Translations under genes and position numbers: made by a program
The notes under the pieces: model-generated
Database searches by the model: none
What the model was told of the DNA's origin: nothing
Seen by the model: the letters and a program-made list of their open reading frames with translations, nothing else
From: JADFSZ01 sp022560555 [NCBI: PVC group bacterium]
Lineage (GTDB): Bacteria; GCA-001730085; JADFSZ01
Length of the DNA: 18,614 bases
Assembly (NCBI GenBank): GCA_022560555.1
Contig: JADFSZ010000011.1
Coordinates: 1-18,614, forward strand
Direction: 5' to 3'
In this document: in pieces, positions 1,606-17,958 of the stretch
How positions within the stretch are numbered: position 1 is the first letter of the stretch
How the letters are laid out: each line of letters starts with the position of its first letter

Positions 1606-1679
1606 GCGCCTATAGCTCAACTGGATAGAGTGTCGGCCTACGAAGCCGAAGGTTCCAGGTTCGACCCCTGGTGGGCGCA
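1606..1679 (+). tRNA. tRNA-Arg (anticodon ACG)
   Basis: A full cloverleaf can be drawn. The acceptor stem is GCGCCTA with TGGGCGC, and the discriminator base is A. The D-stem is GCTC/GAGT, the anticodon stem TCGGC/GCCGA with loop CTACGAA (anticodon 34-36 ACG, normally modified to ICG and reading CGN arginine codons). The variable region is AGGTT, and the T-arm is CCAGG-TTCGACC-CCTGG. The 3' CCA is not encoded. The NuoF-like gene begins 33 bp downstream. Confidence 0.96.
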
Positions 1680-1712
1680 TTTTTTTGGAGTTCGTTTTTT
1701 TTGGAGATTCAT

Positions 1713-3062
1713 ATGTTGAAAGACCAAGCAAGAGAGCTGCATCGCCTTATTCCCGACACGGCCTATCGAACGTATTCGGAATATGCGAGCGCTCAAGGCG
1801 AGGATGTTGTTACCAAAGCCCGGGGCTTGACGACGGATGCGATATTAAAAGAAGTTCTCGACTCAGGATTGCGGGGCCGGGGCGGAGCCGGATTTTTAAC
1901 GGGCGTGAAATGGTCGGGATTATCGCATCACTCTTGTAAAAAAAGGTTTGTCGTATGCAACGGAGCCGAGGGAGAGCCGGGAACGTTTAAGGATCGGTTT
2001 TTATTGAGAAAAAATCCGTACGCGACTTTAGAGGGGATGCTCATTGCCGCGCATGTCCTTTCTGCCGATCAATTGTATATTGCGATGAAAGGCTCTTTTA
2101 AAAAAGAATTGAGCCGTGTTGAATCAGCCATTGAAGAAATGACATCTCTCGGTTTATTTGATCAAATCAAAATCAAAGTTATTCGTGGACCGGAAGAGTA
2201 TTTATTCGGGGAAGAAAAAGCCCTCCTCAATGTGATTGAGGGAGCCGAGCCTTGTCCGAGAGAGGCTCACTATCCTCCGTATGAAGTTGGATTGTTTGGG
2301 AACCTTGTTCATCCGAATCCTGCCCTTGTGAATAATGTCGAGACCTATGCGCGTGTCAGCAGCATCATTCGCAATGGTGCAAAATCATTTCGCACTCTCG
2401 GAACAGAGGATACGCCCGGGCTCTTGATTTTTACCGTTTGCGGCGACGTCGCAAGGCCGGGTGTGTTTGAGATGGAAGCCGGTGTGACCATCAAACATTT
2501 GCTTAACGATATCGCGGGTGGAGCCGGGGCGGGCCGCCGATTAGTTGCGGCTCTATCCGGAGTCTCATCGCGGGTAATACTGGCCAAAGATTTTGATACA
2601 ACGTGTGAGTTTGGCGCATTGAAGGGTATTGGATCAGGCCTCGGCTCTGCCGGGTTCATTGTTTTTGACGACAAAACGGATATGGGCCGGGTTACACAGG
2701 CGATGGCCCGGTTTCTCTATGTCGAATCCTGCAACCAGTGTACCGCCTGCAAACACGGATTAAGAACGGCTTCCGCGGGTTTGGATAAAATGTTTTCCGG
2801 AAGCTCGTCGGGGGCTAGAGATTTGGAGCAGGTCCTACATGGGGCCAAAGGAGCCCCTCAGGGAAATCGCTGTTATTTACCGATCCAAGGCTCCCGGATT
2901 ATCCCGAGTCTGATCGAAAATTTCCGCACATCATTCCAGAAAACTAAAAAAGATTTTTTATCGACATCCCCTTACCAGATCCCCAAAATCAAAGACTTTG
3001 ATGAAGAGAAGCACCTGTTTATCTATGATGAAGCCCAGATGGTGAAACGTCCTGATTGGTAA
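1713..3062 (+). CDS. Orphan NuoF-like NADH-binding FMN/4Fe-4S flavoprotein
   Basis: This 449-residue protein belongs to the family of complex I subunit NuoF, HoxF and the diaphorase subunits of NAD-linked hydrogenases and formate dehydrogenases. These pass electrons between NAD(H), FMN and an Fe-S cluster. The glycine-rich FMN/NADH region RGRGGAGF lies at residues 54-61, and GEPGTFKDR at 87-95. A second nucleotide-binding block with GEEKALL is at 166-172. An SLBB-like stretch spans about 238-270, and the N3-type 4Fe-4S ligands are ESCNQCTACKHG (Cys340, 343, 346) plus Cys387. It lacks the fused thioredoxin-like N-terminus and ferredoxin C-terminus of HydB-type proteins. No NuoE, NuoG or hydrogenase gene adjoins it. 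The ATG at 1713 is used because TTGGAG (1701-1706) precedes it; an upstream in-frame start at 1671 would lie inside the tRNA. The family is secure; partner and substrate are unknown. Confidence 0.88.
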   Translation: MLKDQARELHRLIPDTAYRTYSEYASAQGEDVVTKARGLTTDAILKEVLDSGLRGRGGAGFLTGVKWSGLSHHSCKKRFVVCNGAEGEPGTFKDRFLLRKNPYATLEGMLIAAHVLSADQLYIAMKGSFKKELSRVESAIEEMTSLGLFDQIKIKVIRGPEEYLFGEEKALLNVIEGAEPCPREAHYPPYEVGLFGNLVHPNPALVNNVETYARVSSIIRNGAKSFRTLGTEDTPGLLIFTVCGDVARPGVFEMEAGVTIKHLLNDIAGGAGAGRRLVAALSGVSSRVILAKDFDTTCEFGALKGIGSGLGSAGFIVFDDKTDMGRVTQAMARFLYVESCNQCTACKHGLRTASAGLDKMFSGSSSGARDLEQVLHGAKGAPQGNRCYLPIQGSRIIPSLIENFRTSFQKTKKDFLSTSPYQIPKIKDFDEEKHLFIYDEAQMVKRPDW

Positions 3063-4404: not shown

Positions 4405-5583
4405 TTATTTCAAAATTCTTTTATACAGGGCGCGTGTTGTGTTTGCGATATGAGCCCAGGAAAAGTGATCCGAGACATGTTGTCTTGCGGCCGCGGCCAT
4501 TTTTGAAAGAAGGTCTTTGTCCTGATAGAGTTTAGTGATAGTCCGGGCAAGGTCTTTGGCGAAGTTTTGCGGATGGTTCGTATCGACAGGGACAAGGTGA
4601 CCTGTTTGTCCGTCTGAAACAACTTCCGGGATCCCACCGACAGCGGATGCCACAACAGGTGTCACGCATGCCATGGCCTCTAAATTGATGATTCCGAAAG
4701 GTTCGTACATAGATGGGCAGCAAAAAATCGATGCGTGGGAATAAAATTGAACCAAGTCTTCACGGGATACCATTTTATCAATCCAATAAACATGTGATTT
4801 TGCTTTCTTAAGTTTGTGATATTTTGATTCGAATTCATTTTTGATTTTGGGTGTATCCGGAGAGGCTGCCAAGAGAACGACCCCGAGGTTATCCGGCAAA
4901 TCTTTGGCAGCGTCCAAAAAATGGCTGATTCCTTTTTGGCGTGTGATGCGTCCCACAAAAAGGACATAGTCGAGTGATGAAGGAATATTGTGTTTGTCCA
5001 GGGCATCACGCTTGAGGACTTTTTGATAAACATTTGTGTCGATCCCATTGGGGATGACATGGATCTTTTTTTCGGACACACAAAAGTGCTTTAAGATGTC
5101 CTCTTTGGTACTGGTGGACACAGCAATCACGGCATCCGCCATTTCAAGGGCCGTTTTTTCGACCCAGCAGGAGTACCGATAGCCGCTTTTGAGCTGCTCT
5201 TCTTTCCATGGCCTTAGAGGTTCCAGGGAGTGGACCGTGATGACCAACGGAAGGTGATTAAGCAGCTTGAGAGAGATCCCGGCCTGGTGTGTGTACCAGG
5301 TATGGCAGTGGACGATGTCGGCATCGGTTTTTTTCATCGCCATGGAGGTGTTTCGATAGACCGTTTGGTAGATGTTTTTGAGGTGCTCCGGATAGGAGCC
5401 GGGGATCTTTTCTGCGGGAAATCCATGGACACGCAGGCTTTTTCTGGAGAGAGATTGATTCCCAAAACAGCGGACATCCACCTCAATGAGTTTGGATAAA
5501 GCCTCACATAAGTGCTCCACATGAATACCGGCCCCGCCGTAGACGTTGGGGGGATATTCGTTTGTCAGGATTAAGGTTTTCAT
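4405..5583 (-). CDS. glgM: GT4 maltose-1-phosphate synthase / glycogen synthase, actinobacterial GlgA (GlgM) type
   Basis: This 392-residue GT-B glycosyltransferase matches the actinobacterial glycogen synthase family, whose mycobacterial member GlgM joins ADP-glucose to glucose-1-phosphate to form alpha-maltose-1-phosphate. Signature segments include TNEYPP followed by GGAG (residues 7-19), HSLEPLRPWK (118-127), HVIPNGID (175-182) and GRITRQKG (211-218, with phosphate-binding Arg and Lys). The GT4 EX7E motif is Glu294/Glu302 within EPFGIINLEAM. It lacks the KTGGL motif expected of the GT5 GlgA of enterobacteria. The presence of glgC and glgE next to it favours the GlgM role over direct chain elongation. 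It is transcribed divergently from glgC, with a start at 5583 preceded by AGGGA on its own strand. Family confidence is high; the choice of acceptor is inferred from context. Confidence 0.88.
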   Translation of the reverse strand: MKTLILTNEYPPNVYGGAGIHVEHLCEALSKLIEVDVRCFGNQSLSRKSLRVHGFPAEKIPGSYPEHLKNIYQTVYRNTSMAMKKTDADIVHCHTWYTHQAGISLKLLNHLPLVITVHSLEPLRPWKEEQLKSGYRYSCWVEKTALEMADAVIAVSTSTKEDILKHFCVSEKKIHVIPNGIDTNVYQKVLKRDALDKHNIPSSLDYVLFVGRITRQKGISHFLDAAKDLPDNLGVVLLAASPDTPKIKNEFESKYHKLKKAKSHVYWIDKMVSREDLVQFYSHASIFCCPSMYEPFGIINLEAMACVTPVVASAVGGIPEVVSDGQTGHLVPVDTNHPQNFAKDLARTITKLYQDKDLLSKMAAAARQHVSDHFSWAHIANTTRALYKRILK

Positions 5584-5619
5584 ACGGTATTCCCTGTGAG
5601 TGACATTAAAGATCTCTCA

Positions 5620-5647
5620 AGGATAGGTTTTTTTTAGGTGGGGTCAA
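5620..5647 (-). promoter_or_regulatory. Putative promoter of the minus-strand GT4 gene
   Basis: Reading the minus strand, TTGACC (complement of 5642-5647) and TATCCT (complement of 5620-5625) are separated by 16 bp. This is 37 bp before the start codon and about 35 bp from the core of the divergent glgC promoter. Confidence 0.5.
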
Positions 5648-5679
5648 GAGAATTTTTTATATTCAAAGGGGCAAGGTCT

Positions 5680-5688
5680 TGATATAAT
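5680..5688 (+). promoter_or_regulatory. Extended -10 promoter of glgC
   Basis: TGATATAAT at 5680-5688 is a perfect -10 hexamer with the TGn extension. The -35 position (TATTCA at 5660-5665, 17-bp spacer) is weak, as is usual for extended -10 promoters. A start near 5695 would give a ~45-nt leader to the ATG at 5740. The site shares the 156-bp intergenic region with the divergent GT4 gene. Confidence 0.65.
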
Positions 5689-5739
5689 ACCCGTTTTCGC
5701 AAAAAATACCATTTATGTTGATCTACAAGGATAAGGGTT

Positions 5740-7005
5740 ATGTACAATGTCGCGTGTGTCATATTGGGTGGAGGGCAGGGAGCCCGTCTATATCCGCTGA
5801 CGAAGGATCGGTCCAAACCGGCTGTGCCGTTTGCCGGTCGGTACCGCCTGATCGATATCCCGATCAGTAATTGTCTGCATGCGGGCTTTGATAGTATCTA
5901 TATTCTGACCCAGTTCAATTCCAGATCTCTTAATCGGCATGTCTCACGGACGTATCCCCTGGCCCCTTTTAGAAGGGGTTTTGTGGAAGTGCTTGCGGCC
6001 GAACTGTCCCAAGAAACATCAGAATGGTATCAAGGGACGGCTGACGCGGTGAGGCGGTGTCTCAAGCATTTTGAAGATCCGGGAGTTAAAATTGATTATG
6101 TAATTGTGCTTTCGGGGGATCAACTCTACAAGATGGATTTGCGGCATTTCTTAAACTACCATATTGTTAAAAAGGCAGACATTACGATTGCGTGCAATGT
6201 GATGCCTGAGACGAGTGACATTAGCGGATTTGGGGTTGTCGGAGTCGACGAGGATTTTCATGTGAACAATTTTGTTGAGAAGCCCAAAGAAAAGGCGACC
6301 GTAGAAAATCTTCTTATTTCTTCTAACGGAGAGCGCCGTTTTTTAGCCTCCATGGGCATTTATGCTTTTAATAAAGATGCGCTTGTAGACATCCTTTTGA
6401 CGAGCGATAAAGATGATTTTGGAAAAGAGATTATTCCGGAAGCTTTTCCTCGAAAGCATACCGTCGCGTATGAATATGAGGGGTATTGGCAGGATGTGGG
6501 ATCGATCAGATCCTATTATGAACAAAATTTGGCGTTTACAGATCCGATTCCGCCCATGGATCTTTTTGACGCTAATTGGCCGTTTTTTACGCGCCCACGC
6601 TATCTTCCTCCCTCGAAATTTAACGGGTGTGAAATTGCAAATTCGATTGTGGCTGAAGGGGTCATTGTCTTAAACGGATCTCACATTCGTCATTCCGTTG
6701 TTGGATTGCGCAGCCGCATTGCTGAAGACACAACCATTGAGGACGCGATTCTCATCGGAAACGATTATTATGAGACACTGGATGACATAAATCGCTCCGG
6801 AGAAAAAGGGCTTCCGATCATGGGGATTGGGCATAACACCGTGATAAAGAGAGCCATTATTGATAAAAATGTACGTATCGGAAGCAATGTGTGCATTGAA
6901 AACAAACGGAATCTCACGGAAGCGGATGAGGCCAATTACATTATTCGTGATGAGATCGTGATTATCCCGAAGGGAGCCATCATTCCGGACGGGACAGTAA
7001 TCTAA
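5740..7005 (+). CDS. glgC: Glucose-1-phosphate adenylyltransferase (ADP-glucose pyrophosphorylase)
   Basis: GlgC makes ADP-glucose from glucose-1-phosphate and ATP, the committed step of bacterial alpha-glucan synthesis. The 421-residue length is typical. The N-terminal nucleotidyltransferase domain carries GGGQGARLYPLT (10-21), the KPAVPFAG loop (26-33), WYQGTADA (96-103), SGDQLY (125-130), FVEKPKE (178-184) and YWQDVGS (249-255). The C-terminal left-handed beta-helix with hexapeptide repeats runs from about 295 to 421. The pattern resembles cyanobacterial and plant enzymes more than the enterobacterial form. The ATG at 5740 follows AAGGA (5727-5731). It diverges from the GT4 gene that should use its product, and it is the first of the plus-strand glucan genes. 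Allosteric control is expected for the family, but effector specificity cannot be read here. Confidence 0.95.
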   Translation: MYNVACVILGGGQGARLYPLTKDRSKPAVPFAGRYRLIDIPISNCLHAGFDSIYILTQFNSRSLNRHVSRTYPLAPFRRGFVEVLAAELSQETSEWYQGTADAVRRCLKHFEDPGVKIDYVIVLSGDQLYKMDLRHFLNYHIVKKADITIACNVMPETSDISGFGVVGVDEDFHVNNFVEKPKEKATVENLLISSNGERRFLASMGIYAFNKDALVDILLTSDKDDFGKEIIPEAFPRKHTVAYEYEGYWQDVGSIRSYYEQNLAFTDPIPPMDLFDANWPFFTRPRYLPPSKFNGCEIANSIVAEGVIVLNGSHIRHSVVGLRSRIAEDTTIEDAILIGNDYYETLDDINRSGEKGLPIMGIGHNTVIKRAIIDKNVRIGSNVCIENKRNLTEADEANYIIRDEIVIIPKGAIIPDGTVI

Positions 7006-7526: not shown

Positions 7527-10007
7527 ATGAAAAAAATACAACACAAAAAAATCCTCCTTGAAGCTCACAAAAACGACCCAAAATCTATCGCGGCATCTTT
7601 TCTTTATAATCTGGAGCAGAAATTAGCCAAAGACGAATACTCCGCGACAGAACTGGATTGTTTTTTGGCCTTGGCGTACACCATTCGGGATCGTCTTGTT
7701 TCGAATTGGATCAAGACCCAGCAGTCCTATCACCACAAAAATGTCAAACGTGTTTATTATTTCTCGTTTGAATACCTGATCGGAAGAACGCTCGGCAACA
7801 GTCTTTTGAATCTCGGGCTCGAAGAGACGTGTGACAAGGCGATGAAATTATTAGATTTGGATGTTGATCAGCTGCGGGATGTTGAGGTGGACGCGGCTCT
7901 GGGTAACGGCGGCCTGGGACGGCTCGCGGCCTGTTTTTTAGATTCGATGGCGACGCTGGAAATTCCGTCGCACGCCTATGGTATCCGTTACGAGTACGGG
8001 ATGTTCAACCAGGAGATCCAAAACGGATGGCAGGTTGAAAAACCAGAAGAATGGTTGAAATTTTCCAATCCGTGGGAAATCGCGCGGCCCGAATACACGT
8101 ATCGCGTCAAATTTTACGGAACAACACGCTGCGAAAAACGAAAGAACGGCACATGGGAATTTTTCTGGGAAAACACGGATGATGTGTACGCTCTTCCTTA
8201 CGACACACCGGTCCCCGGATACGCGACCAAGAACGTGAACACGATGCGGCTGTGGGCCGCTGTGGCCACCGAAGAGTTTGATATGGATTATTTTAACAGC
8301 GGCGATTATATGGCCGCGTGTGAAAAGAAGGCCATGACGGAAAATATTTCACGCGTTTTATATCCGAATGATTCCATGTTTGCGGGAAGAGAATTACGTC
8401 TTAAGCAACAGTATTTTTTTGTCACGGCGTCTTTACAGGATATTTTGAGACGGTTTAAAGCCGAAAATAAACACCTGAAATATTTCCCCGACAAGGCCGT
8501 CATTCAGCTCAATGACACTCATCCGGCTGTCGCGATTCCGGAATTGATGCGGATACTGATGGATCAAGAGCTTCTTTCTTGGAATCAGGCCTGGGACATC
8601 ACGATACGGACATTTGCGTATACAAATCATACCATTTTGTCCGAGGCCCTGGAGGCGTGGTCGATTCCTTTGTTTGAGAGGCTGCTGCCCCGGCATATGC
8701 AAATTATTTACGAAATCAATCATCGATTTTTAAAAGAAGTCCTAAAACAATATCCGGGGGACATAGAACGTATCCGGAGGATGTCGCTCATTGAGGAGGA
8801 AGACCCCAAAAGAATCCGCATGGCGCATTTGTCCATTGTCGGATCGCGATCCATCAACGGGGTATCGAAGCTTCACACAAAAATACTCAAAGAAAAAATA
8901 TTCCATGATTTTTATCAATTGTATCCCGAGAGGTTCAACAACAAAACAAACGGGATTACACAACGACGCTGGCTTAAAAAATCTAATCCCCGATTGGCGG
9001 ATCTGATCACCGGAAAAATCGGAAACAAATGGATATCGGATTTATCGTGCTTAAAAAAAATATCCAAGTATGCCGGCAATAAATCCTTTCATAAGGAATG
9101 GCAAAAAATTAAATATGCGAATAAAAAGAGTCTGGCAGATATTATCTACGATACAGTGTCTATTCGTGTGGATCCTAACAGTCTGTTTGACGTTCAGATT
9201 AAACGTTTCCACGAATACAAACGCCAGCTCTTGTTTGCGTTTTACGCCATCGGGATGTACATCCGGATTAAAGAATCGCATGAAAATATTGAAATCCCTC
9301 GCACGTTGATTGTGGCCGGAAAATCAGCTCCGGGATACACATTCGCGAAGCTAGTCATAAAGCTTATTAACAATATCTCGTTTGTGATCAATCAGGACTC
9401 TGATGTAAGGGATCTTTTAAAAGTTGTGTTTTTGCCGAATTACCGGGTGAGTTTGGCCGAAAAAATATTTCCGGCGGCGGAACTCTCGGAACAGATTTCC
9501 ACAGCCGGATTTGAAGCGTCCGGCACGGGTAATATGAAATTTGCCTTGAACGGAGCTCTGACGATCGGTACATTGGATGGAGCGAACATTGAAATACAAG
9601 AAGAAGTGGGTGAAGAAAATATTTTTATATTCGGGCACACGGCCCAAGAGATCGAGGGCTTGAAAAACAAGGGATATCAACCCGAAGGCTTTCTCAAGGA
9701 TTCGCCTCTTTTACAAGAAGTTCTTAAACTCATCCAAGGCGATCTTTTTTGTCCGGGCGAGCCCGGGATTTTTCAGCCGATTGCGGACAGATGTACCCGC
9801 GACGGGGATCCTTACATGGTCTTAGCCGATTTTGACAAATATATTTCCTGTCAGGAGCGTGTTTCAAAAGCCTATCAGGACAAAGATTCTTGGACACGCA
9901 TGTCCATTCAGAATGTGGCTCATATGGGCAAATTTTCGTCTGATCGGACCATCAGAGAATACGCGCATGATATCTGGCACGTCAAACCCTCCCCGGTATC
10001 CAAATAA
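7527..10007 (+). CDS. glgP: Glycogen/maltodextrin phosphorylase (GT35)
   Basis: GlgP releases glucose-1-phosphate from the non-reducing ends of alpha-1,4-glucans. The 826-residue length is typical of GT35. Family landmarks are YFSFEYLIGR (78-87), ALGNGGLGRLAACF (124-137), QLNDTHPA (327-334), the FNNKTNGITQRRWL block (470-483), DVQIKRFHEYKRQ (555-567), and EASGTGNMKF (663-672) in which Lys671 is the pyridoxal-phosphate lysine. No key residue is missing. In a GlgC/GlgM/GlgE locus it can both mobilise stored glucan and supply glucose-1-phosphate. The ATG at 7527 lacks a well spaced Shine-Dalgarno (AAAGGGGG at 7506-7512 is about 14 nt away), so translation may be weak or controlled; the family alignment still supports this start. 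A promoter-like TTGTTT-N16-TAAAAT follows the gene. Confidence 0.96.
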   Translation: MKKIQHKKILLEAHKNDPKSIAASFLYNLEQKLAKDEYSATELDCFLALAYTIRDRLVSNWIKTQQSYHHKNVKRVYYFSFEYLIGRTLGNSLLNLGLEETCDKAMKLLDLDVDQLRDVEVDAALGNGGLGRLAACFLDSMATLEIPSHAYGIRYEYGMFNQEIQNGWQVEKPEEWLKFSNPWEIARPEYTYRVKFYGTTRCEKRKNGTWEFFWENTDDVYALPYDTPVPGYATKNVNTMRLWAAVATEEFDMDYFNSGDYMAACEKKAMTENISRVLYPNDSMFAGRELRLKQQYFFVTASLQDILRRFKAENKHLKYFPDKAVIQLNDTHPAVAIPELMRILMDQELLSWNQAWDITIRTFAYTNHTILSEALEAWSIPLFERLLPRHMQIIYEINHRFLKEVLKQYPGDIERIRRMSLIEEEDPKRIRMAHLSIVGSRSINGVSKLHTKILKEKIFHDFYQLYPERFNNKTNGITQRRWLKKSNPRLADLITGKIGNKWISDLSCLKKISKYAGNKSFHKEWQKIKYANKKSLADIIYDTVSIRVDPNSLFDVQIKRFHEYKRQLLFAFYAIGMYIRIKESHENIEIPRTLIVAGKSAPGYTFAKLVIKLINNISFVINQDSDVRDLLKVVFLPNYRVSLAEKIFPAAELSEQISTAGFEASGTGNMKFALNGALTIGTLDGANIEIQEEVGEENIFIFGHTAQEIEGLKNKGYQPEGFLKDSPLLQEVLKLIQGDLFCPGEPGIFQPIADRCTRDGDPYMVLADFDKYISCQERVSKAYQDKDSWTRMSIQNVAHMGKFSSDRTIREYAHDIWHVKPSPVSK

Positions 10008-10086: not shown

Positions 10087-12042
10087 ATGGTGTATGAAGG
10101 ACATAAACGCGTTATTATTGAACACCTTAGGCCTCAGATTGACGGCGGCGAATTTCCGATCAAGCGGGTATTGGGCGAGCGAGTCAGGGTGGAGGCGGAT
10201 GTTTTTGCCGATGGGCATGAGCAACTGGCCGTTCTATTGATGTGGCGTCCAATGTCTGCCAAAACCTGGAAGACAAAACCCATGAGACCTCTTGCCAATG
10301 ATGTGTGGAGCGCGTCTTTTGTGTGCGAGGGCTTGGAGCCTTATGAATACACTGTGCGCGGATGGATGGATCATTATGAGACATGGCGCCTCAATTTAAT
10401 AAAAAAGATGGATGTCGGACAAGATATCAGTGTGGATTTAAGAATCGGGGCCGCATTTCTCAAGAAGGGGGTTAAACAAGCCAAAGGAAATAAAAAGAAA
10501 ATTTTAGAATCCATATTTAAAAAATTTAACATGCTCAAAAACGACAAAGCTATTCGTTTGTTTATCCAAAACGAGAAATACAATCAATCCATTCGTGAAT
10601 CTATCACTCCTTCTTTCATAACAGAATATAACAAGAAGCTTCAAGTTAAAGTTCATCGAACACGTGCCTTATTTAGCTCCTGGTACGAATTGTTTCCCCG
10701 CTCGACGAAAGAAAATTCACTCCAACACGGCACTTTTAAAGATTGTGAAAAGATTTTGCCCGATATCGCGGCTATGGGATTTGATGTTGTGTATTTTCCT
10801 CCGATCCATCCGATCGGTGTGACAAACCGCAAGGGAAAAAATAACGTGCTTGGGGCCGCGTCCGGTGATCCGGGCAGTCCGTGGGCCATTGGGAGCGCCG
10901 AAGGCGGACACAAATCGGTTCATCCCGAACTCGGCACAATAAAAGATTTTAGACGTCTTGTGAAAAAAACAAAATCCCTCGGTATGGAGATAGCTTTGGA
11001 TCTAGCGTTTCAGTGCTCACCGGATCATCCGTACGAAAACGAGCATCCCGAGTGGTTCAAATGGCGTCCGGACGGGACGGTGCAGTACGCTGAAAATCCT
11101 CCCAAAAAATATGAAGATATTATTCCTTTTAATTTTGAGACCCGGGATCAAAAAAATCTATGGAAGGAGCTCAAAAGCATTGTGGATTTTTGGATCGAGA
11201 AAGGTGTGCGCATTTTTCGTGTGGACAATCCGCACACAAAGCCGTATGTCTTTTGGCAGTGGCTGTTGGGGGAAGTTGAAAAATCACATCCTGATGTGAT
11301 TTTTCTCGCTGAGGCCTTTACCCGGCCCAAGATTATGCGTCATTTGGCCAAACTGGGATTTCACCAGTCTTATACTTATTTTACGTGGCGCACGACCAAA
11401 AAAGAATTTATCAAATATTTGACAGAGTTAACAAAAACAGAAGCTAAGGAATACTTTCGGCCGAATTTTTGGCCGAATACGCCGGATATTTTATCCATTT
11501 ATCTGCAGAACGCTGATCGAGCCGCTTTTGTGATCCGGCTTGTTTTGGCCGCGACCATGAGTAGTAATTACGGCATCTATGGGCCTGCGTATGAGTTGTG
11601 CGAAAATCAGCCTACTCCCGGTAAAGAAGAGTATGCGGATAATGAAAAGTATGAAATTAAGGATTGGCGCCTGGGGGCGGCGGATTCCATGAGGCCTTTT
11701 ATTACACAATTGAATCATATCCGTCGGAAGTATGATGCGTTTCAAACGACAAGAAACATTCGATTTCATCGATCTGAGAGCGAACACATATTATGCTATT
11801 CAAAAATGAGCCGGGACACCGCGGAAATTTTTATTGTGGTTGTCAATTTAGATCCCCAGGGCACGCAGTCAGGCTGGGTTGACATCCCCGTTTTAGATTG
11901 GGGATTTGATAAGGATCGACCCTATCAAGTTGAAGATGTTTTAACGGAAGTCAAAACCACGTGGACGAACGAGCGCAATATTGTGAAGCTCGATCCACGG
12001 AAGTGTCCCGCGCAAATTTTCAGGTTGGAAAAAATTTCCTAA
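10087..12042 (+). CDS. glgE: Alpha-1,4-glucan:maltose-1-phosphate maltosyltransferase (GH13_3)
   Basis: GlgE transfers maltosyl units from alpha-maltose-1-phosphate to the non-reducing end of alpha-1,4-glucan. The 651-residue protein has an N-terminal beta-domain (about 1-120), a helical insert (about 125-190), the GH13 barrel opening with SSWYELFPRS (197-206), and a C-terminal beta-domain. The nucleophile is Asp380 in FRVDNPHTKP, the acid/base is Glu409 in LAEAFTRPK, and the stabilising Asp467 lies in WPNTPDIL. KEEYADNEKYE (513-523) corresponds to the M1P-binding EKY motif that separates GlgE from ordinary amylases and from TreS. The ATG at 10087 is preceded by AAGGA (10076-10080, 6-nt spacing). 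It begins a run in which the gap to glgB is only 20 bp. With GlgC and the GT4 synthase it completes the GlgM-GlgE route; treS and pep2 are not in the window. Confidence 0.95.
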   Translation: MVYEGHKRVIIEHLRPQIDGGEFPIKRVLGERVRVEADVFADGHEQLAVLLMWRPMSAKTWKTKPMRPLANDVWSASFVCEGLEPYEYTVRGWMDHYETWRLNLIKKMDVGQDISVDLRIGAAFLKKGVKQAKGNKKKILESIFKKFNMLKNDKAIRLFIQNEKYNQSIRESITPSFITEYNKKLQVKVHRTRALFSSWYELFPRSTKENSLQHGTFKDCEKILPDIAAMGFDVVYFPPIHPIGVTNRKGKNNVLGAASGDPGSPWAIGSAEGGHKSVHPELGTIKDFRRLVKKTKSLGMEIALDLAFQCSPDHPYENEHPEWFKWRPDGTVQYAENPPKKYEDIIPFNFETRDQKNLWKELKSIVDFWIEKGVRIFRVDNPHTKPYVFWQWLLGEVEKSHPDVIFLAEAFTRPKIMRHLAKLGFHQSYTYFTWRTTKKEFIKYLTELTKTEAKEYFRPNFWPNTPDILSIYLQNADRAAFVIRLVLAATMSSNYGIYGPAYELCENQPTPGKEEYADNEKYEIKDWRLGAADSMRPFITQLNHIRRKYDAFQTTRNIRFHRSESEHILCYSKMSRDTAEIFIVVVNLDPQGTQSGWVDIPVLDWGFDKDRPYQVEDVLTEVKTTWTNERNIVKLDPRKCPAQIFRLEKIS

Positions 12043-12062: not shown

Positions 12063-12641
12063 ATGAATCAAAAGCCGAGCAACAGTACGGGTGTTCAACA
12101 CGGTATCAGCCGTTTGACGGATGAAGATATTTTTTTATTTAAAAGCGGATCACACTTTCGCCTTTATGACAAATTGGGGGCCCATGTGATGGAGGTTGAC
12201 GGAGTCAAGGGGACCTTGTTTTCGGTATGGGCCCCGAGCGCGAAGGCTGTATCGGTAATCGGAGATTTTAACGCTTGGAATCCCACGGGACATCCGCTCA
12301 GTGTTCGCTGGGATGAATCGGGTATTTGGGAAGGGTTTGTTTCCGGAGTCAAGACAGGGATGTGCTACAAATATCGCGTTGAGTCCTGTAACGGTGATTT
12401 TACGGTTGATAAAGGTGATCCGTACGCTTATCTCTGGGAAGTACCGCCCAAAACAGCCTCGGTAGTTTGGAATCTTGAGTATGAGTGGCAGGATCAATCT
12501 TGGATGAACAAGCGAAAGGATCGAAACGCGCTCAACAGCCCCATGTCTGTTTATGAAGTGCATTTAGGGTCATGGAAACGAAAACCTGACAATCCGTTTC
12601 ATTCGCTTTCGTACCGTGAATTAGCCGAAGAGCTTCCCTAA
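12063..12641 (+). CDS. GlgB N-terminal fragment (CBM48 and first barrel strand)
   Basis: If the TAA is real, translation yields 192 residues. They hold the CBM48 carbohydrate-binding module (FSVWAPSAKAVSVIGDFNAW) and the first strand of the GH13 barrel (MSVYEVHLGSWKR), ending in EELP. It has no catalytic residue. Confidence 0.6.
   Translation: MNQKPSNSTGVQHGISRLTDEDIFLFKSGSHFRLYDKLGAHVMEVDGVKGTLFSVWAPSAKAVSVIGDFNAWNPTGHPLSVRWDESGIWEGFVSGVKTGMCYKYRVESCNGDFTVDKGDPYAYLWEVPPKTASVVWNLEYEWQDQSWMNKRKDRNALNSPMSVYEVHLGSWKRKPDNPFHSLSYRELAEELP
12639..12641 (+). other. In-frame TAA stop inside glgB
   Basis: Codon 193 of glgB is TAA in the context CTT-CCC-TAA-TAT-GTG. Frame is conserved on both sides. 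TAA ends eight other complete frames here (the outer-membrane protein, NuoF-like, cyclase, GT4, glgC, glgP and glgE genes, and the end of glgB itself), so it is a normal stop in this genome. Confidence 0.9.
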
Positions 12642-12644
12642 TAT

Positions 12645-14003
12645 GTGAAAGACATGGGATTTACACATGTCGAATTGATGCCTGTGATGGAGCATCCGTT
12701 TTTTGGATCCTGGGGATATCAAGTCACGGGGTATTTTTCTCCGTCGAACAGATACGGAACGCCTCAGGATTTTATGTTTTTGGTCGACAGCTTTCATCAG
12801 AAGGATATTGGTGTGATCGTCGATTGGGTTCCGTCGCATTTTCCTTCGGATGAGCATGGACTCGTGTATTTTGACGGAACACATCTTTACGAACACGCCG
12901 ATTCGAAAAAGGGGTTTCACCCGGACTGGAGCAGTTATATTTACAATTACGGACGGAACGAGGTGAGAGCGTTTCTTGTGAGCAACGCCGTTTTTTGGCT
13001 GGATAAATACCATATCGACGGGCTGCGCGTGGACGCGGTGGCCTCATTGCTGTATTTAGATTATTCGAGAAAAGAAGGCGAGTGGATTCCCAATGAATAT
13101 GGCGGCCGCGAAAATTTAGAGGCGATCCATTTCTTAAAAACATTAAACGAAGAAGTATATTCATCTTTTCCGGATGTGCAGATGATTGCTGAAGAATCCA
13201 CCGCGTGGCCGATGGTATCCCGTCCGACGTATTTAGGCGGCCTCGGATTTGGTCTCAAATGGAACATGGGCTGGATGAATGACACGCTTCGGTATTTCTC
13301 GAAGGATCCTATTTATCGAAAACATCATCATAACGAATTAACGTTCAGTATGATTTACGCGTTTACGGAAAATTTTGTTTTGTCAATTTCGCATGATGAA
13401 ATGGTGCACGGAAAAAGATCATTGCTTAATAAAATGCCCGGGGATGATTGGCAAAAATTCGCTAATGTGCGGCTTCTTTTCGGTTACATGTTTTCTCACC
13501 CGGGAAAGAAACTGCTTTTTATGGGGTCTGAATTCGGCCAATGGGACGAGTGGAACCATGACGGGAGTTTGGACTGGTATTTATTGGAAACGCCACGGCA
13601 CGCCCATCTGCAAAGAACGCTAAAGGATCTGAATGCTATTTACAAGAGCCATCCGAGTTTGTATGAGGATGATTTTACGTCGGAAGGTTTTGAATGGATT
13701 GACGGCGGTGATTGGGAGTCGAGTATTATTTGTTTTTTAAGAAAGGACAAATTGGCTCGTGAGAAAATTATGTCTGTCTGTAATTTCACGCCGACCCCTC
13801 GCCATGATTATCGCGTGGGTGTAACTGACAGCGGGGAATGGGAGCAATTGTTTAACAGTGACGACACGAAATATGGCGGAAGCGGACTTGGAAATCCAAA
13901 AACTCTCATCGCCGAAGAACATGCTTGGCACGGACGGGATTTTTCCTTAGTGCTCACGCTGCCTCCTTTGTCAGTGATGTGGTTTAAAAAACAAATAAAA
14001 TAA
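12645..14003 (+). CDS. GlgB C-terminal fragment (catalytic barrel lacking its first strand)
   Basis: An open stretch resumes one codon after the TAA. GTG at 12645 or ATG at 12654 could restart translation, but neither has a good Shine-Dalgarno. The product holds all three catalytic acids and the C-terminal beta domain, but lacks barrel strand 1 and the CBM48, so it is unlikely to be active alone. Confidence 0.6.
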
Positions 14004-14016
14004 ATAAGTGGGTCGC

Positions 14017-16452
14017 ATGAGTCGTAAAAATATATGTATTCACGGACATTTTTATCAACCTCCGAGAGAAAATCCATGGCTCAATGAAGTGGAGCTTCAG
14101 GAGTCGGCCTACCCCTATCACGATTGGAATGATCGTATTACGGCCGAATGTTATTCCCGCAATGCCGCGTCGCGTATTTTAGGTTCGGACGGGCGTATCA
14201 TTGACATCGTTAACAATTACTCCCGGATGAGTTTTAATTTTGGCCCCACCTTGCTCCAATGGATGAAAAAAAAGAAGCCGGATGTTTACGAGGCGATTCT
14301 TCAGGCGGACAAGGAAAGCCAAAAACGGTTTTCCGGACACGGATCAGCGATCGCTCAAGCCTACAATCACATGATCATGCCTTTGGGGAACGACCGGGAT
14401 CGATGGACCCAGGTTGTTTGGGGCATTCGGGATTTTCAAGAGCATTTCAAAAGAGATCCCGAGGGCATGTGGCTTCCCGAGACGGCAGTGAATACCCCGA
14501 CATTAGAAGTTTTGGCCGAGAATGGAATAAAATTTACAATTTTGTCTCCCTCTCAAGCAAAGCGTGTCAGAAAGATGGGGGAGAAGTTCTTGGAAAACAC
14601 CGAGGGAGCTAAAGTAAATCCACGGCAGCCGTATTTGTGTCATCTTCCTTCGGGGCAGAGCATCGTTTTGTTTTTTTATGACGCTCCCGTGGCTCAAGCG
14701 ATCGCGTTTGAGCATTTACTTAAGGACGGGGAGCAGTTTGCCAACCGGCTTTTAAACGCGTTTGGCTCTGATGATACAATGTCAAGTTTGGTTCATGTGG
14801 CTACCGATGGAGAAACATACGGACACCATCATGATTTTGGTGAGATGGCTTTGTCGTACGCCCTGTATCAAATTGAACAAAACCCGGATGTGGATTTGAC
14901 GGTTTACGGAGAATATCTCGAGAAAAATCCTCCCGAGTGGGAGGCAGAAATACTCGAAGACACGGCGTGGAGTTGTTCTCATGGGGTGGGACGTTGGAAA
15001 AACGATTGCGGATGTTCAAGCGGACAGCATCCTGAATGGAATCAATTGTGGCGTGAGCCATTACGAAACGCTTTTGACTGGTTGAGAGAAGCTTTAGCAC
15101 AATTATATGAGACTAAGATGAGTTCCTATGTTTCAGATCCGTGGGATGTGCGGAATCAATATGTTGACGTAATATTGAGACGTGATGCAAAAGCAGCCGG
15201 CGGGTTCTTAAAAAAACACGCAAACCGGACATTAGAAAAAGATGATTATTCTCAGATGCTTCAGCTGTTAGAGATGTCTCATCATGCCATGTTGATGTAC
15301 ACCAGCTGCGGATGGTTTTTTGATGAAGTGACCGGGATTGAGACGATGCAGAATCTTTTTTACGCGGCACGGGCCATGCAGCTCGCTCAAAATTTGACGG
15401 GGCATTCCTTTGAAGACGAATTCATCCCTCTCTTGGAGAAGGTTCCCAGCAATGCCGCGGAATATAAAAATGCGGCTGAGGCGTATCAGTCAATTGTTCA
15501 GCCTGCTGTACTGGATTTGCTGCGTGTGGGCGGACATTACGCGGTCTCCAGCCTTTTTTCTGACTATCCTGATCGGATTCAAATTTTTAGTTACATGGCC
15601 GAATCCGATTCTCACAAAGTATTGGAAGCGGGAAAGCACCGGCTGGCTTTTGGCAAAACCAAACTTGTGTCTGATATTACGTGGGAAGAACGTTTGGTCA
15701 CGTTTGCGATATTGCATTTAGGTGAGCACAATCTTTGGGGAGGTGTCCGGGATTATCAGGATGACACAGCTTTTCATAAGATGTGTGAAGAGATCAGCCT
15801 GGTTTTCGAAAAAGGGGATGTCACACGGATGATTCAACTGATGGATAAACATTTTGGAAGTCACAGTTATTCATTCCGGCATCTTTTTCGTGATGAACAA
15901 AGAAAAATTATGGAACATGTCTTAGATAAATCGCGAGCGGAAGTTGAACATGCTTTAGCACAAGTCTATCGAAATCATTATCCTGTGATGCAAGCCGTAA
16001 GACAGCTTGGACTTCCCTTACCCAAAGCTCTCAAGATGACGAGTGAGTGTATCATTCACACGGAATTAAGAAAGATTCTTGAAAATAATGATCTTGATTT
16101 CGATGCCCTCGATCGAACGGTTGACGGAGTCAAAAATCTTTCGGTTGATCTTGATAAGATTACCCTTAATTATCTTGTGACCCGGTGTATTACGCGGATG
16201 ATGGAGAAGTGGTGTGATACACCCGAAGACACAATTCAAATGAAAAGCATGATCCGGTTTTTGGAAAAAATTCGGTTGATTCAGCTTGTGCCGAATTTGT
16301 GGAGGGCACAAAATTTATGTTTTTGGGTCGCGAAAAAAATGTATCAGCAATGCGAAGCCGGAGTCGATGAGGGAGATTTCGTGCGCCGGGAATGGTGCCA
16401 AGCGTTCTCGGAGCTGCTTGAGCGTCTTTATATTAAACTACGGGAAAAGTGA
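14017..16452 (+). CDS. GH57 family enzyme with DUF3536-type C-terminal region
   Basis: This 811-residue protein belongs to GH57, which contains retaining amylases, 4-alpha-glucanotransferases and branching enzymes. The usual conserved motifs are present: H-x-H-x-YQPP (9-16), GHG (107-109), the nucleophile Glu155 in GMWLPE, and the acid/base Asp264 in ATDGETYGHHH. The remainder, including a Cys-rich CSHGVGRWKNDCGC segment (320-333) and a long helical C-terminal half, fits the uncharacterised DUF3536 group. It differs from the DUF1957-type GH57 branching enzymes. The ATG at 14017 is preferred over a GTG at 14008; it follows AAGTGGG and lies 13 nt after the glgB stop. Only 3 nt separate its stop from malQ, so it is surely co-expressed. 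A role in cutting or remodelling glucan is inferred; a substitute branching activity is only a possibility. Confidence 0.88.
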   Translation: MSRKNICIHGHFYQPPRENPWLNEVELQESAYPYHDWNDRITAECYSRNAASRILGSDGRIIDIVNNYSRMSFNFGPTLLQWMKKKKPDVYEAILQADKESQKRFSGHGSAIAQAYNHMIMPLGNDRDRWTQVVWGIRDFQEHFKRDPEGMWLPETAVNTPTLEVLAENGIKFTILSPSQAKRVRKMGEKFLENTEGAKVNPRQPYLCHLPSGQSIVLFFYDAPVAQAIAFEHLLKDGEQFANRLLNAFGSDDTMSSLVHVATDGETYGHHHDFGEMALSYALYQIEQNPDVDLTVYGEYLEKNPPEWEAEILEDTAWSCSHGVGRWKNDCGCSSGQHPEWNQLWREPLRNAFDWLREALAQLYETKMSSYVSDPWDVRNQYVDVILRRDAKAAGGFLKKHANRTLEKDDYSQMLQLLEMSHHAMLMYTSCGWFFDEVTGIETMQNLFYAARAMQLAQNLTGHSFEDEFIPLLEKVPSNAAEYKNAAEAYQSIVQPAVLDLLRVGGHYAVSSLFSDYPDRIQIFSYMAESDSHKVLEAGKHRLAFGKTKLVSDITWEERLVTFAILHLGEHNLWGGVRDYQDDTAFHKMCEEISLVFEKGDVTRMIQLMDKHFGSHSYSFRHLFRDEQRKIMEHVLDKSRAEVEHALAQVYRNHYPVMQAVRQLGLPLPKALKMTSECIIHTELRKILENNDLDFDALDRTVDGVKNLSVDLDKITLNYLVTRCITRMMEKWCDTPEDTIQMKSMIRFLEKIRLIQLVPNLWRAQNLCFWVAKKMYQQCEAGVDEGDFVRREWCQAFSELLERLYIKLREK

Positions 16453-16455
16453 TTC

Positions 16456-17958
16456 ATGAAATCTATTCGGTCATCCGGAATTTTACTTCATATCACGAGT
16501 TTACCAGGATCTTTTGGTATTGGTGACCTGGGACCGTCTGCGTATCAATTTGCTGATTTTTTGAATCGGTCCGGAGTTGCTTTTTGGCAGATCCTTCCTA
16601 TAAATCACATCGATCCCACGGGCGGTCATTCGCCCTACAGCGCTTTATCCGTATTCGCGGGCGATCCCTGGCTGATTAGTTTGGAAAAACTTTGTTCCAT
16701 GGGTCTGCTCCAAAAAAAAGATATTCTAGCCTCCGTCATACCTTCCGAGGATAGTGTGGATTTTCAAAAGATGACGGATGTGAAGGAGCCTCTCTTTGAG
16801 AAAGCGTTTAAGAAGTTTTGTTTAAAAGATAGATATCGCGCTTCATTCAAGAAATTTTGCGCGGATCAGGCTGAATGGCTGGATTCGTACACGATATTTA
16901 TCAGTATCAGAAATCAGCTGCACGGTAAGAACTGGTGGAAGTGGCCTAAAAACCTGCGGGACCGGGATCCGAGCCTCATAAGAAAGGTTCAAAAGAACCT
17001 GAAAAATGATATTTTGAAAGAAAAGTTTCTGCAGTATATATTTTTCCGGCAATGGTTTGAGCTTAAAAGCTATTGCCGTAAAAAAGGTATCCGGATTATC
17101 GGGGATGTGCCGATCTATGTCGGACGGGACAGTGTGGATGTGTGGGCGCACCGGCGTATCTTCTCTCTTAAAAAAAATGGTATTCCGACAGCTGTGAGCG
17201 GTGCGCCGCCGGATTATTACAGCCGGACAGGACAGCGTTGGGGCAACCCTCTATACAGGTGGGACGTTTTAAGAAAAACCCGGTATGCCTGGTGGATGAA
17301 AAGACTGAATCACAATTTGAAGCTTTTTGATAAAATCCGCATTGATCACTTCCGGGGTTTTGTGGCATATTGGGCGATCCCCACGCATCATAAATCGGCG
17401 CGGCGTGGGAAATGGGTGAAAGCACCGGCGCGTGATTTTTTAAAAGTGGTCCTTCAAAAAATCCCGAAGAGCGCAATTATTGCCGAAGACTTGGGGTATA
17501 TCACGGCTGATGTACGAAAGGTGATGGATCATTTCGGTTTTGCCGGAATGCGGTTGTTGCTCTTTGGGTTCGGCCCAAAATTTTTAACCCATCGTTTTGC
17601 GCCTCACAATCATGTACGTAACTGTGTGGTGTACACAGGAACGCATGACAACAATACGGCGATAGGCTGGCTCCGACAAGAAGCCACAAAAGCCGACAGG
17701 AAAAGACTTGAACAGTATGTCGCACAAAAGGTCACCAAAGACAATGTGGCGTCTGTGATGCGGATGATGGCGTGGAAGTCTGTGGCGGATCTTGCGGTTG
17801 TTCCGATTCAGGATGTGTTGGAATTGGGGCCTAAAGCCCGTATGAATATTCCGGCTACGGTGAAGGGGAATTGGGTCTGGAAATTGACAGACTTGGACTT
17901 TGCACCCATGGTGTCAAAAATGCTTTATACAGAATTAAAAACCTGCAAAAGAATCTAG
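16456..17958 (+). CDS. malQ: 4-alpha-glucanotransferase (amylomaltase, GH77)
   Basis: MalQ transfers alpha-1,4-glucan chains between maltodextrins, recycling short chains and releasing glucose. The 500-residue size fits the short amylomaltase form. Motifs are SPYSALSVFAGDPWL (59-73), GDVPIYV (216-222), the nucleophile Asp297 in RIDHFRG, acid/base Glu344 in IIAEDLG, and the stabilising Asp398 in YTGTHDN. All catalytic positions are intact. The start codon lies 3 nt after the GH57 stop, which points to translational coupling. It is the last gene of the glgE run and ends in TAG (17956-17958); the overlapping CTAG also supplies the stop of the convergent LapA-like gene. Confidence 0.95.
   Translation: MKSIRSSGILLHITSLPGSFGIGDLGPSAYQFADFLNRSGVAFWQILPINHIDPTGGHSPYSALSVFAGDPWLISLEKLCSMGLLQKKDILASVIPSEDSVDFQKMTDVKEPLFEKAFKKFCLKDRYRASFKKFCADQAEWLDSYTIFISIRNQLHGKNWWKWPKNLRDRDPSLIRKVQKNLKNDILKEKFLQYIFFRQWFELKSYCRKKGIRIIGDVPIYVGRDSVDVWAHRRIFSLKKNGIPTAVSGAPPDYYSRTGQRWGNPLYRWDVLRKTRYAWWMKRLNHNLKLFDKIRIDHFRGFVAYWAIPTHHKSARRGKWVKAPARDFLKVVLQKIPKSAIIAEDLGYITADVRKVMDHFGFAGMRLLLFGFGPKFLTHRFAPHNHVRNCVVYTGTHDNNTAIGWLRQEATKADRKRLEQYVAQKVTKDNVASVMRMMAWKSVADLAVVPIQDVLELGPKARMNIPATVKGNWVWKLTDLDFAPMVSKMLYTELKTCKRI

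What the first reader, a model, noticed from the sequence alone, without database searches (positions are those of the whole stretch)
12639..12641. glgB split by one in-frame TAA with no other damage
Both sides of the stop align collinearly and in the same frame to one branching enzyme, and all catalytic residues are kept. That fits a very recent nonsense change (probably GAA to TAA), a base-call error, or programmed readthrough. Eight other frames here end in TAA, so codon reassignment is unlikely. If real, the cell makes GlgE-route glucan without a working GH13 branching enzyme, unless another enzyme substitutes.
Basis: partly seen in the sequence, partly recalled or inferred. Interest (0 to 1): 0.7.

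Follow-up and report, generated by a model that had tools for sequence, protein, structure and literature searches.

The report
Lone stop codon inside glgB
A draft genome of an environmental bacterium has one stop codon cutting its only recognised glycogen-branching-enzyme gene in two; this looks like an ordinary recent nonsense change or a base error, not a new way of reading genes.

Summary
TAA at 12639-12641 is in frame inside an otherwise complete glgB (12063-14003); both sides match one GH13 branching enzyme. At this column 102 of 102 homologous rows from other genomes have a sense codon. Of 140 genomes with a strong glgB match among 386, only this one has an interior stop; a weaker, contig-edge glgB fragment (L008) has a TAG 12 codons upstream. 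The gene shows no decay: 1 of 108 near-invariant columns departs, and 94 of 100 homologues depart at one or none.

Nothing positive supports recoding. TAA ends 142 of 283 long frames in the stretches sampled; the RNA downstream folds like shuffles; no UUA-anticodon tRNA appears in an incomplete list. The nearest in-frame restart, GTG 12645, has no better than random ribosome-site pairing.

The 91.5% complete genome shows no other GlgB and no GH57 branching-enzyme domain. The adjacent GH57-DUF3536 protein lacks branching fingerprints, and a characterised protein of that kind barely branches.

Best reading: a recent nonsense allele or a draft-genome base error; only reads can separate them. Ordinary, low interest.

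The parts
12063..12638 (+). 5' part of glgB: 192 codons, CBM48 and the start of the GH13 barrel
   Evidence: Pfam CBM_48 at residues 37-122; GlgB model NF008967 positions 5-176
12639..12641 (+). in-frame TAA, codon 193 of glgB, followed by T
   Evidence: sense codon in 102 of 102 homologous rows from other genomes
12642..14003 (+). 3' part of glgB: catalytic residues, C-terminal all-beta domain, terminal TAA
   Evidence: NF008967 positions 180-628 and Alpha-amylase_C; PDB GlgB chains 6joy, 8zqa, 1m7x matched
12645..12647 (+). GTG, nearest in-frame possible restart after the stop
   Evidence: anti-SD pairing -2.1 kcal/mol; 55% of 306 random positions inside genes do as well or better
14008..16452 (+). 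adjacent GH57-DUF3536 protein, the only other candidate for acting on this glucan as a GH57 enzyme
   Evidence: PF12055 and PF03065; HGHFY and ETYGHH in the translation; only GH57 in the held genome
10087..12042 (+). glgE, gene before glgB
   Evidence: GlgE_dom_N_S and GLGE_C

Best explanation
glgB of a GlgE cluster carries a single, recent nonsense codon in the sampled strain. Translation stops after 192 residues, giving a fragment with CBM48 and no catalytic residue, so little or no active GH13 branching enzyme is made. Shown: the in-frame stop, the absence of other damage in the gene, ordinary use of TAA in this genome, and no second GlgB or GH57 branching-enzyme domain in the held genome. 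Inferred: that the stop is present in the living population, and that the product is inactive.
For: Exactly one interior stop, collinear halves. Stop unique among 102 homologous rows from other genomes at this column and among 140 genomes with a strong match. 1 of 108 near-invariant columns departs, against one or none in 94 of 100 homologues, so the loss is young: a simple bound gives about 0.012-0.018 neutral substitutions per site at most. TAA is the commonest terminator, 142 of 283 long frames. The sampled stretches of the same assembly are not rich in false stops.
Against: A base error in the consensus predicts the same sequence, with no decay at all. No reads and no close relative were available: the one same-phylum genome returned has no glgB match. 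A weak restart site does not exclude a second product, since the glgB start itself pairs poorly (+1.3 kcal/mol).
Confidence: 0.52

Rival explanations
1. Consensus error in the draft genome: the population carries an intact glgB, and one base was called wrongly or a minority variant entered the consensus.
For: Lone change with no decay; draft genome in 222 contigs; no close relative holds it. A partial glgB of another genome (L008) has a TAG in its last 18 codons before the contig end, the sort of place where errors occur.
Against: The stop lies about 6 kb from either contig end. In 60 other stretches of this genome no other clear case was found, apart from one unclear case 190 bases from a contig end; the scan tested 10 of 38 pairs with Pfam.
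Confidence: 0.38
2. Split but working enzyme: translation restarts at GTG 12645 and the two chains assemble.
For: GTG lies in frame three bases after the stop; the 452-aa part keeps the catalytic residues and passes the whole-protein cut-off of NF008967 alone (744.9 against 577 bits); conserved columns are intact on both sides.
Against: The cut falls inside the catalytic domain rather than at a domain border (inferred). GTG pairing is no better than random. No homologue examined is split here: G182 looked so but has N at the junction.
Confidence: 0.06
3. Stop codon readthrough restores the full-length enzyme.
For: Only the open frame after the stop and its intact sequence.
Against: TAA is the ordinary terminator and TAAT is used at 32 long frames. 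Folding after the stop is like shuffles, z -0.64. No Rfam element there. No UUA anticodon among tRNAs listed, though the list is incomplete.
Confidence: 0.03
4. TAA is reassigned to an amino acid in this organism.
For: None beyond the in-frame TAA.
Against: TAA ends 142 of 283 long frames in the sample and 8 of the 12 window frames listed.
Confidence: 0.01

Closest known systems
GH13 glycogen branching enzyme GlgB (NF008967, TIGR01515; PDB 1m7x, 6joy)
   Same: Domain order, catalytic residues and full-length collinear match in two pieces
   Different: One in-frame stop at codon 193; no such stop in 102 homologous rows at the column
PoGH57 of Pontibacter sp. SGAir0037, a GH57-DUF3536 protein of a GlgE locus (PMC11206854; passages, section 2.1)
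   Same: The adjacent window protein has the same HGHFY and ETYGHH motifs and DUF3536, in a cluster with glgE, glgB and malQ
   Different: The window protein is untested; [quoted passage not shown]
Nonsense-inactivated glgA-glgB fusion of E. lausannensis (PMC7935935; passages)
   Same: A premature stop removes a branching-enzyme product
   Different: There the stop lies in the GlgA part of a fusion and a second gene, glgB2, is kept; here no second GlgB was found

Membership tests
GlgB (GH13 branching enzyme) | CBM48, GH13 catalytic and alpha-amylase C domains in order | tested here: met
   Pfam on the two parts, GlgB models
GlgB (GH13 branching enzyme) | Catalytic Asp, Glu, Asp (recalled from E. 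coli GlgB) | tested here: met
   motifs located, aligned to solved GlgB chains
GlgB (GH13 branching enzyme) | One uninterrupted reading frame | tested here: not met
   interior TAA at 12639
GlgB (GH13 branching enzyme) | Branching activity | not testable with these tools
   needs an assay
GH57 branching enzyme (considered for 14008-16452) | HxHLP in CSR-I and ELF(Y)GHW in CSR-IV (fingerprints as given in PMC11206854) | tested here: not met
   window protein has HGHFY and ETYGHH
GH57 branching enzyme (considered for 14008-16452) | BE_C domain PF09210 | tested here: not met
   no match in the held genome; DUF3536 instead
Codon reassignment of TAA | TAA avoided as terminator | tested here: not met
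   142 of 283 long frames end in TAA
Suppressor-tRNA readthrough | tRNA with UUA anticodon | tested here: inconclusive
   none listed, but the genome-wide list stopped at 30 matches and no Tyr, His, Cys, Asn or Asp tRNA was listed

The most novel reading that the evidence does not exclude
A naturally split branching enzyme: translation restarts at GTG 12645 and a GH13 barrel cut within its first helix reassembles from two chains into a working GlgB.
Probability: 0.06. Interest if true: 0.55.

Novelty: already known. Interest (0 to 1): 0.12.

Why it matters
If the stop is real, a lineage with glgC, a GT4 synthase, glgE, glgP and malQ has just lost its only recognised branching enzyme and should make sparsely branched or linear glucan, a small natural test of how far the GlgE route tolerates that. 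If it is an error, it shows how weak one codon of a draft genome is as evidence of gene loss.

Tried and rejected
Codon reassignment: contradicted by stop usage.

A second branching enzyme: whole-genome searches with Alpha-amylase_C, Alpha-amylase, Glyco_hydro_57 and BE_C found glgB and glgE (GH13), one GH57 (the neighbour) and no BE_C. The genome is 91.5% complete, so absence is not proof.

A recurrent split at this place: G182 looked like one (match from query residue 189), but it has N at the junction and lacks residues, so it is an assembly gap.

In-frame stops in other glgB genes: 28 rows of other genomes were flagged; all 28 were re-read, and their stops lie at the genes' own ends. Other damage seen: a frame change in L213 (G363), a possible one near the N-terminus of L208 (G007), and the TAG in the fragment L008 (G057).

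Other cut genes in this genome: 38 same-frame pairs, of which glgB is one, 10 were tested with Pfam and 27 were not.

Close relatives: only one same-phylum genome was returned, with no glgB match. Structure prediction was not run, since a fold would not show which fragments are made.

Full report
What is there. The window is one contig (C131) of a 1.66-Mb draft genome in 222 contigs, 91.5% complete. It carries a glycogen cluster: a GT4 glycosyltransferase matching glgA_Coryne on the minus strand (4405-5583), glgC (5740-7005), glgP (7527-10007), glgE (10087-12042), glgB (12063-14003), a GH57-DUF3536 protein (14008-16452) and malQ (16456-17958). glgB has one in-frame TAA at 12639-12641, codon 193, and no other interior stop; the 11 other window frames that I listed have none.

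Is it one gene. Yes. The 5' part matches GlgB model NF008967 at positions 5-176 and the 3' part at 180-628. CBM48 lies wholly before the stop; most of the alpha-amylase domain and the C-terminal domain lie after it. From the alignments I infer that the stop falls in the first helix of the barrel, so the catalytic domain is cut. The three catalytic positions (identity recalled from E. coli GlgB) are kept.

Is the stop peculiar to this sequence. Of the 115 loci held, 107 rows covered the column. Five are this genome's own and show TAA; the other 102 have a sense codon (P 36, D 24, E 19, K 5, Q 5, A 4, S 2, R 2, N 2, L 1, G 1, T 1). One of the 102, L008 (G057), has a TAG 12 codons upstream of the column, in the last 18 codons before its contig ends. 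A survey of 386 genomes gave 140 with a match at E <= 1e-100, this genome included. Stops were flagged in 28 rows of other genomes; all 28 were re-read and the stops lie at the genes' own ends. So this genome is the only one of 140; the L008 fragment lies outside that set. One genome of the same phylum was returned, without a glgB match; no member of the same genus, family, order or class was.

How old could it be. Of 108 columns at least 98% conserved among 100 homologues, the window protein departs at one (V447M, beside the third catalytic residue); 94 of the 100 homologues depart at one or none in a leave-one-out test. Since 74% of random substitutions are missense and 5% make a new stop, neutral drift beyond about 0.012 (for no hit) to 0.018 (for one hit) substitutions per site would be unlikely (a simple Poisson bound). 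The stop is recent, or not in the cells at all.

Decoding. In the window plus 60 other stretches (431,671 bases, 38,074 of them N) 320 long frames were kept; the 283 with a visible end finish in TAA 142, TGA 85 and TAG 56 times, and TAAT occurs 32 times; the interior stop is not among them. TAA is thus the ordinary terminator. The 120 bases after the stop fold no better than shuffles (z -0.64; 49 of 200 shuffles fold as well), and Rfam finds only a tRNA in the window. No UUA anticodon was listed, but the genome-wide tRNA list stopped at 30 matches and lacks Tyr, His, Cys, Asn and Asp, so this test is incomplete.

Restart. GTG 12645 lies in frame three bases after the stop. Its anti-SD pairing is -2.1 kcal/mol; 55% of 306 random positions inside genes do as well or better. 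First-ATG starts average -3.9 (n 291). The glgB start itself pairs worse (+1.3), so a weak site does not exclude translation.

Other cut genes in this genome. A coding-potential scan of the sample gave 38 same-frame pairs, the window's glgB among them; it is not exhaustive. Ten others were tested with Pfam. In L198 a weak PBP_like_2 match (20.2 bits, cut-off 27) runs across a TAA 190 bases from a contig end, where the sequence looks joined from two sources; I leave it open. In L176 a sub-threshold MnmE_helical match (21.2 bits, cut-off 40.1) also runs across the stop, but full-strength Obg and amino-acid-kinase domains lie on either side, so these are two genes. In the other eight no domain spans the stop. 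The remaining 27 pairs were not tested; 25 of them have ATG, GTG or TTG within 18 codons of the stop. So the sample shows no flood of false stops.

Substitutes. Genome-wide searches found GlgE and GlgB as the only GH13 proteins, one GH57 (the neighbour) and no GH57 branching-enzyme C-domain. The neighbour has HGHFY and ETYGHH, the motifs that PMC11206854 reports for PoGH57 of Pontibacter, a DUF3536 protein of a GlgE locus that lacks both branching fingerprints (section 2.1 read), for which 4-alpha-glucanotransferase activity is suggested and which has almost no branching activity (passages). A homologue of this GH57 protein also lies near an uninterrupted glgB in L032, L035, L080 and L084, and a GH57 gene follows the gapped glgB of L206. 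It therefore looks like a partner of GlgB rather than a replacement.

Verdict. An ordinary lone nonsense codon: a recent allele (0.52) or a consensus error (0.38), with small shares for a split enzyme (0.06), readthrough (0.03) and reassignment (0.01). These odds are judgement, not computed. A comparable loss is in print: a premature stop in the glgA-glgB fusion of E. lausannensis, which keeps glgB2 (PMC7935935, passages). A library search for glgB, premature stop codon and glycogen together gave two papers; I read passages of PMC7935935 and nothing of PMC4154780. Other paper searches were seen as listings only, apart from PMC11206854.

Noticed in passing
4405-7005 and 10087-12042: The cluster has glgC, a GT4 synthase (glgA_Coryne match, GlgM-like from recall) and glgE; a genome search with the TreS model gave only sub-threshold matches within glgB and glgE, which suggests that GlgE is fed by a GlgC and GT4 route rather than by trehalose.
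   Followed up: partly
14008-16452: GH57-DUF3536 protein next to glgB; homologues lie near uninterrupted glgB in L032, L035, L080 and L084.
   Followed up: partly
1606-1679 and 1671: A tRNA-Arg (ACG) overlaps the listed GTG start of the NuoF-like frame 1671-3062, so the real start is probably further in.
   Followed up: no
13401-13403 (residue 447): Met where at least 98% of homologues have Val, in SHDEMVHGK beside the third catalytic residue.
   Followed up: no
L198:1-498: Frame with a TAA 190 bases from the contig end, a weak PBP_like_2 match across it and a change of character at the stop; possibly a false join.
   Followed up: partly
L008, last 18 codons: glgB fragment of another genome with an in-frame TAG close to the contig end, 12 codons upstream of the window's stop column.
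   Followed up: partly
L213 and L208: glgB matches that change frame: clear in L213 (G363), possible near the N-terminus in L208 (G007).
   Followed up: no
L206 around 2926: glgB of G182 has N and missing residues at almost the same place as the window's stop: an assembly gap that mimics a split.
   Followed up: yes
L036: A 3-kb contig labelled Candidatus Methanomethylicia archaeon encodes a bacterial-type GlgB 66% identical to the window's; possibly a contaminant contig.
   Followed up: no
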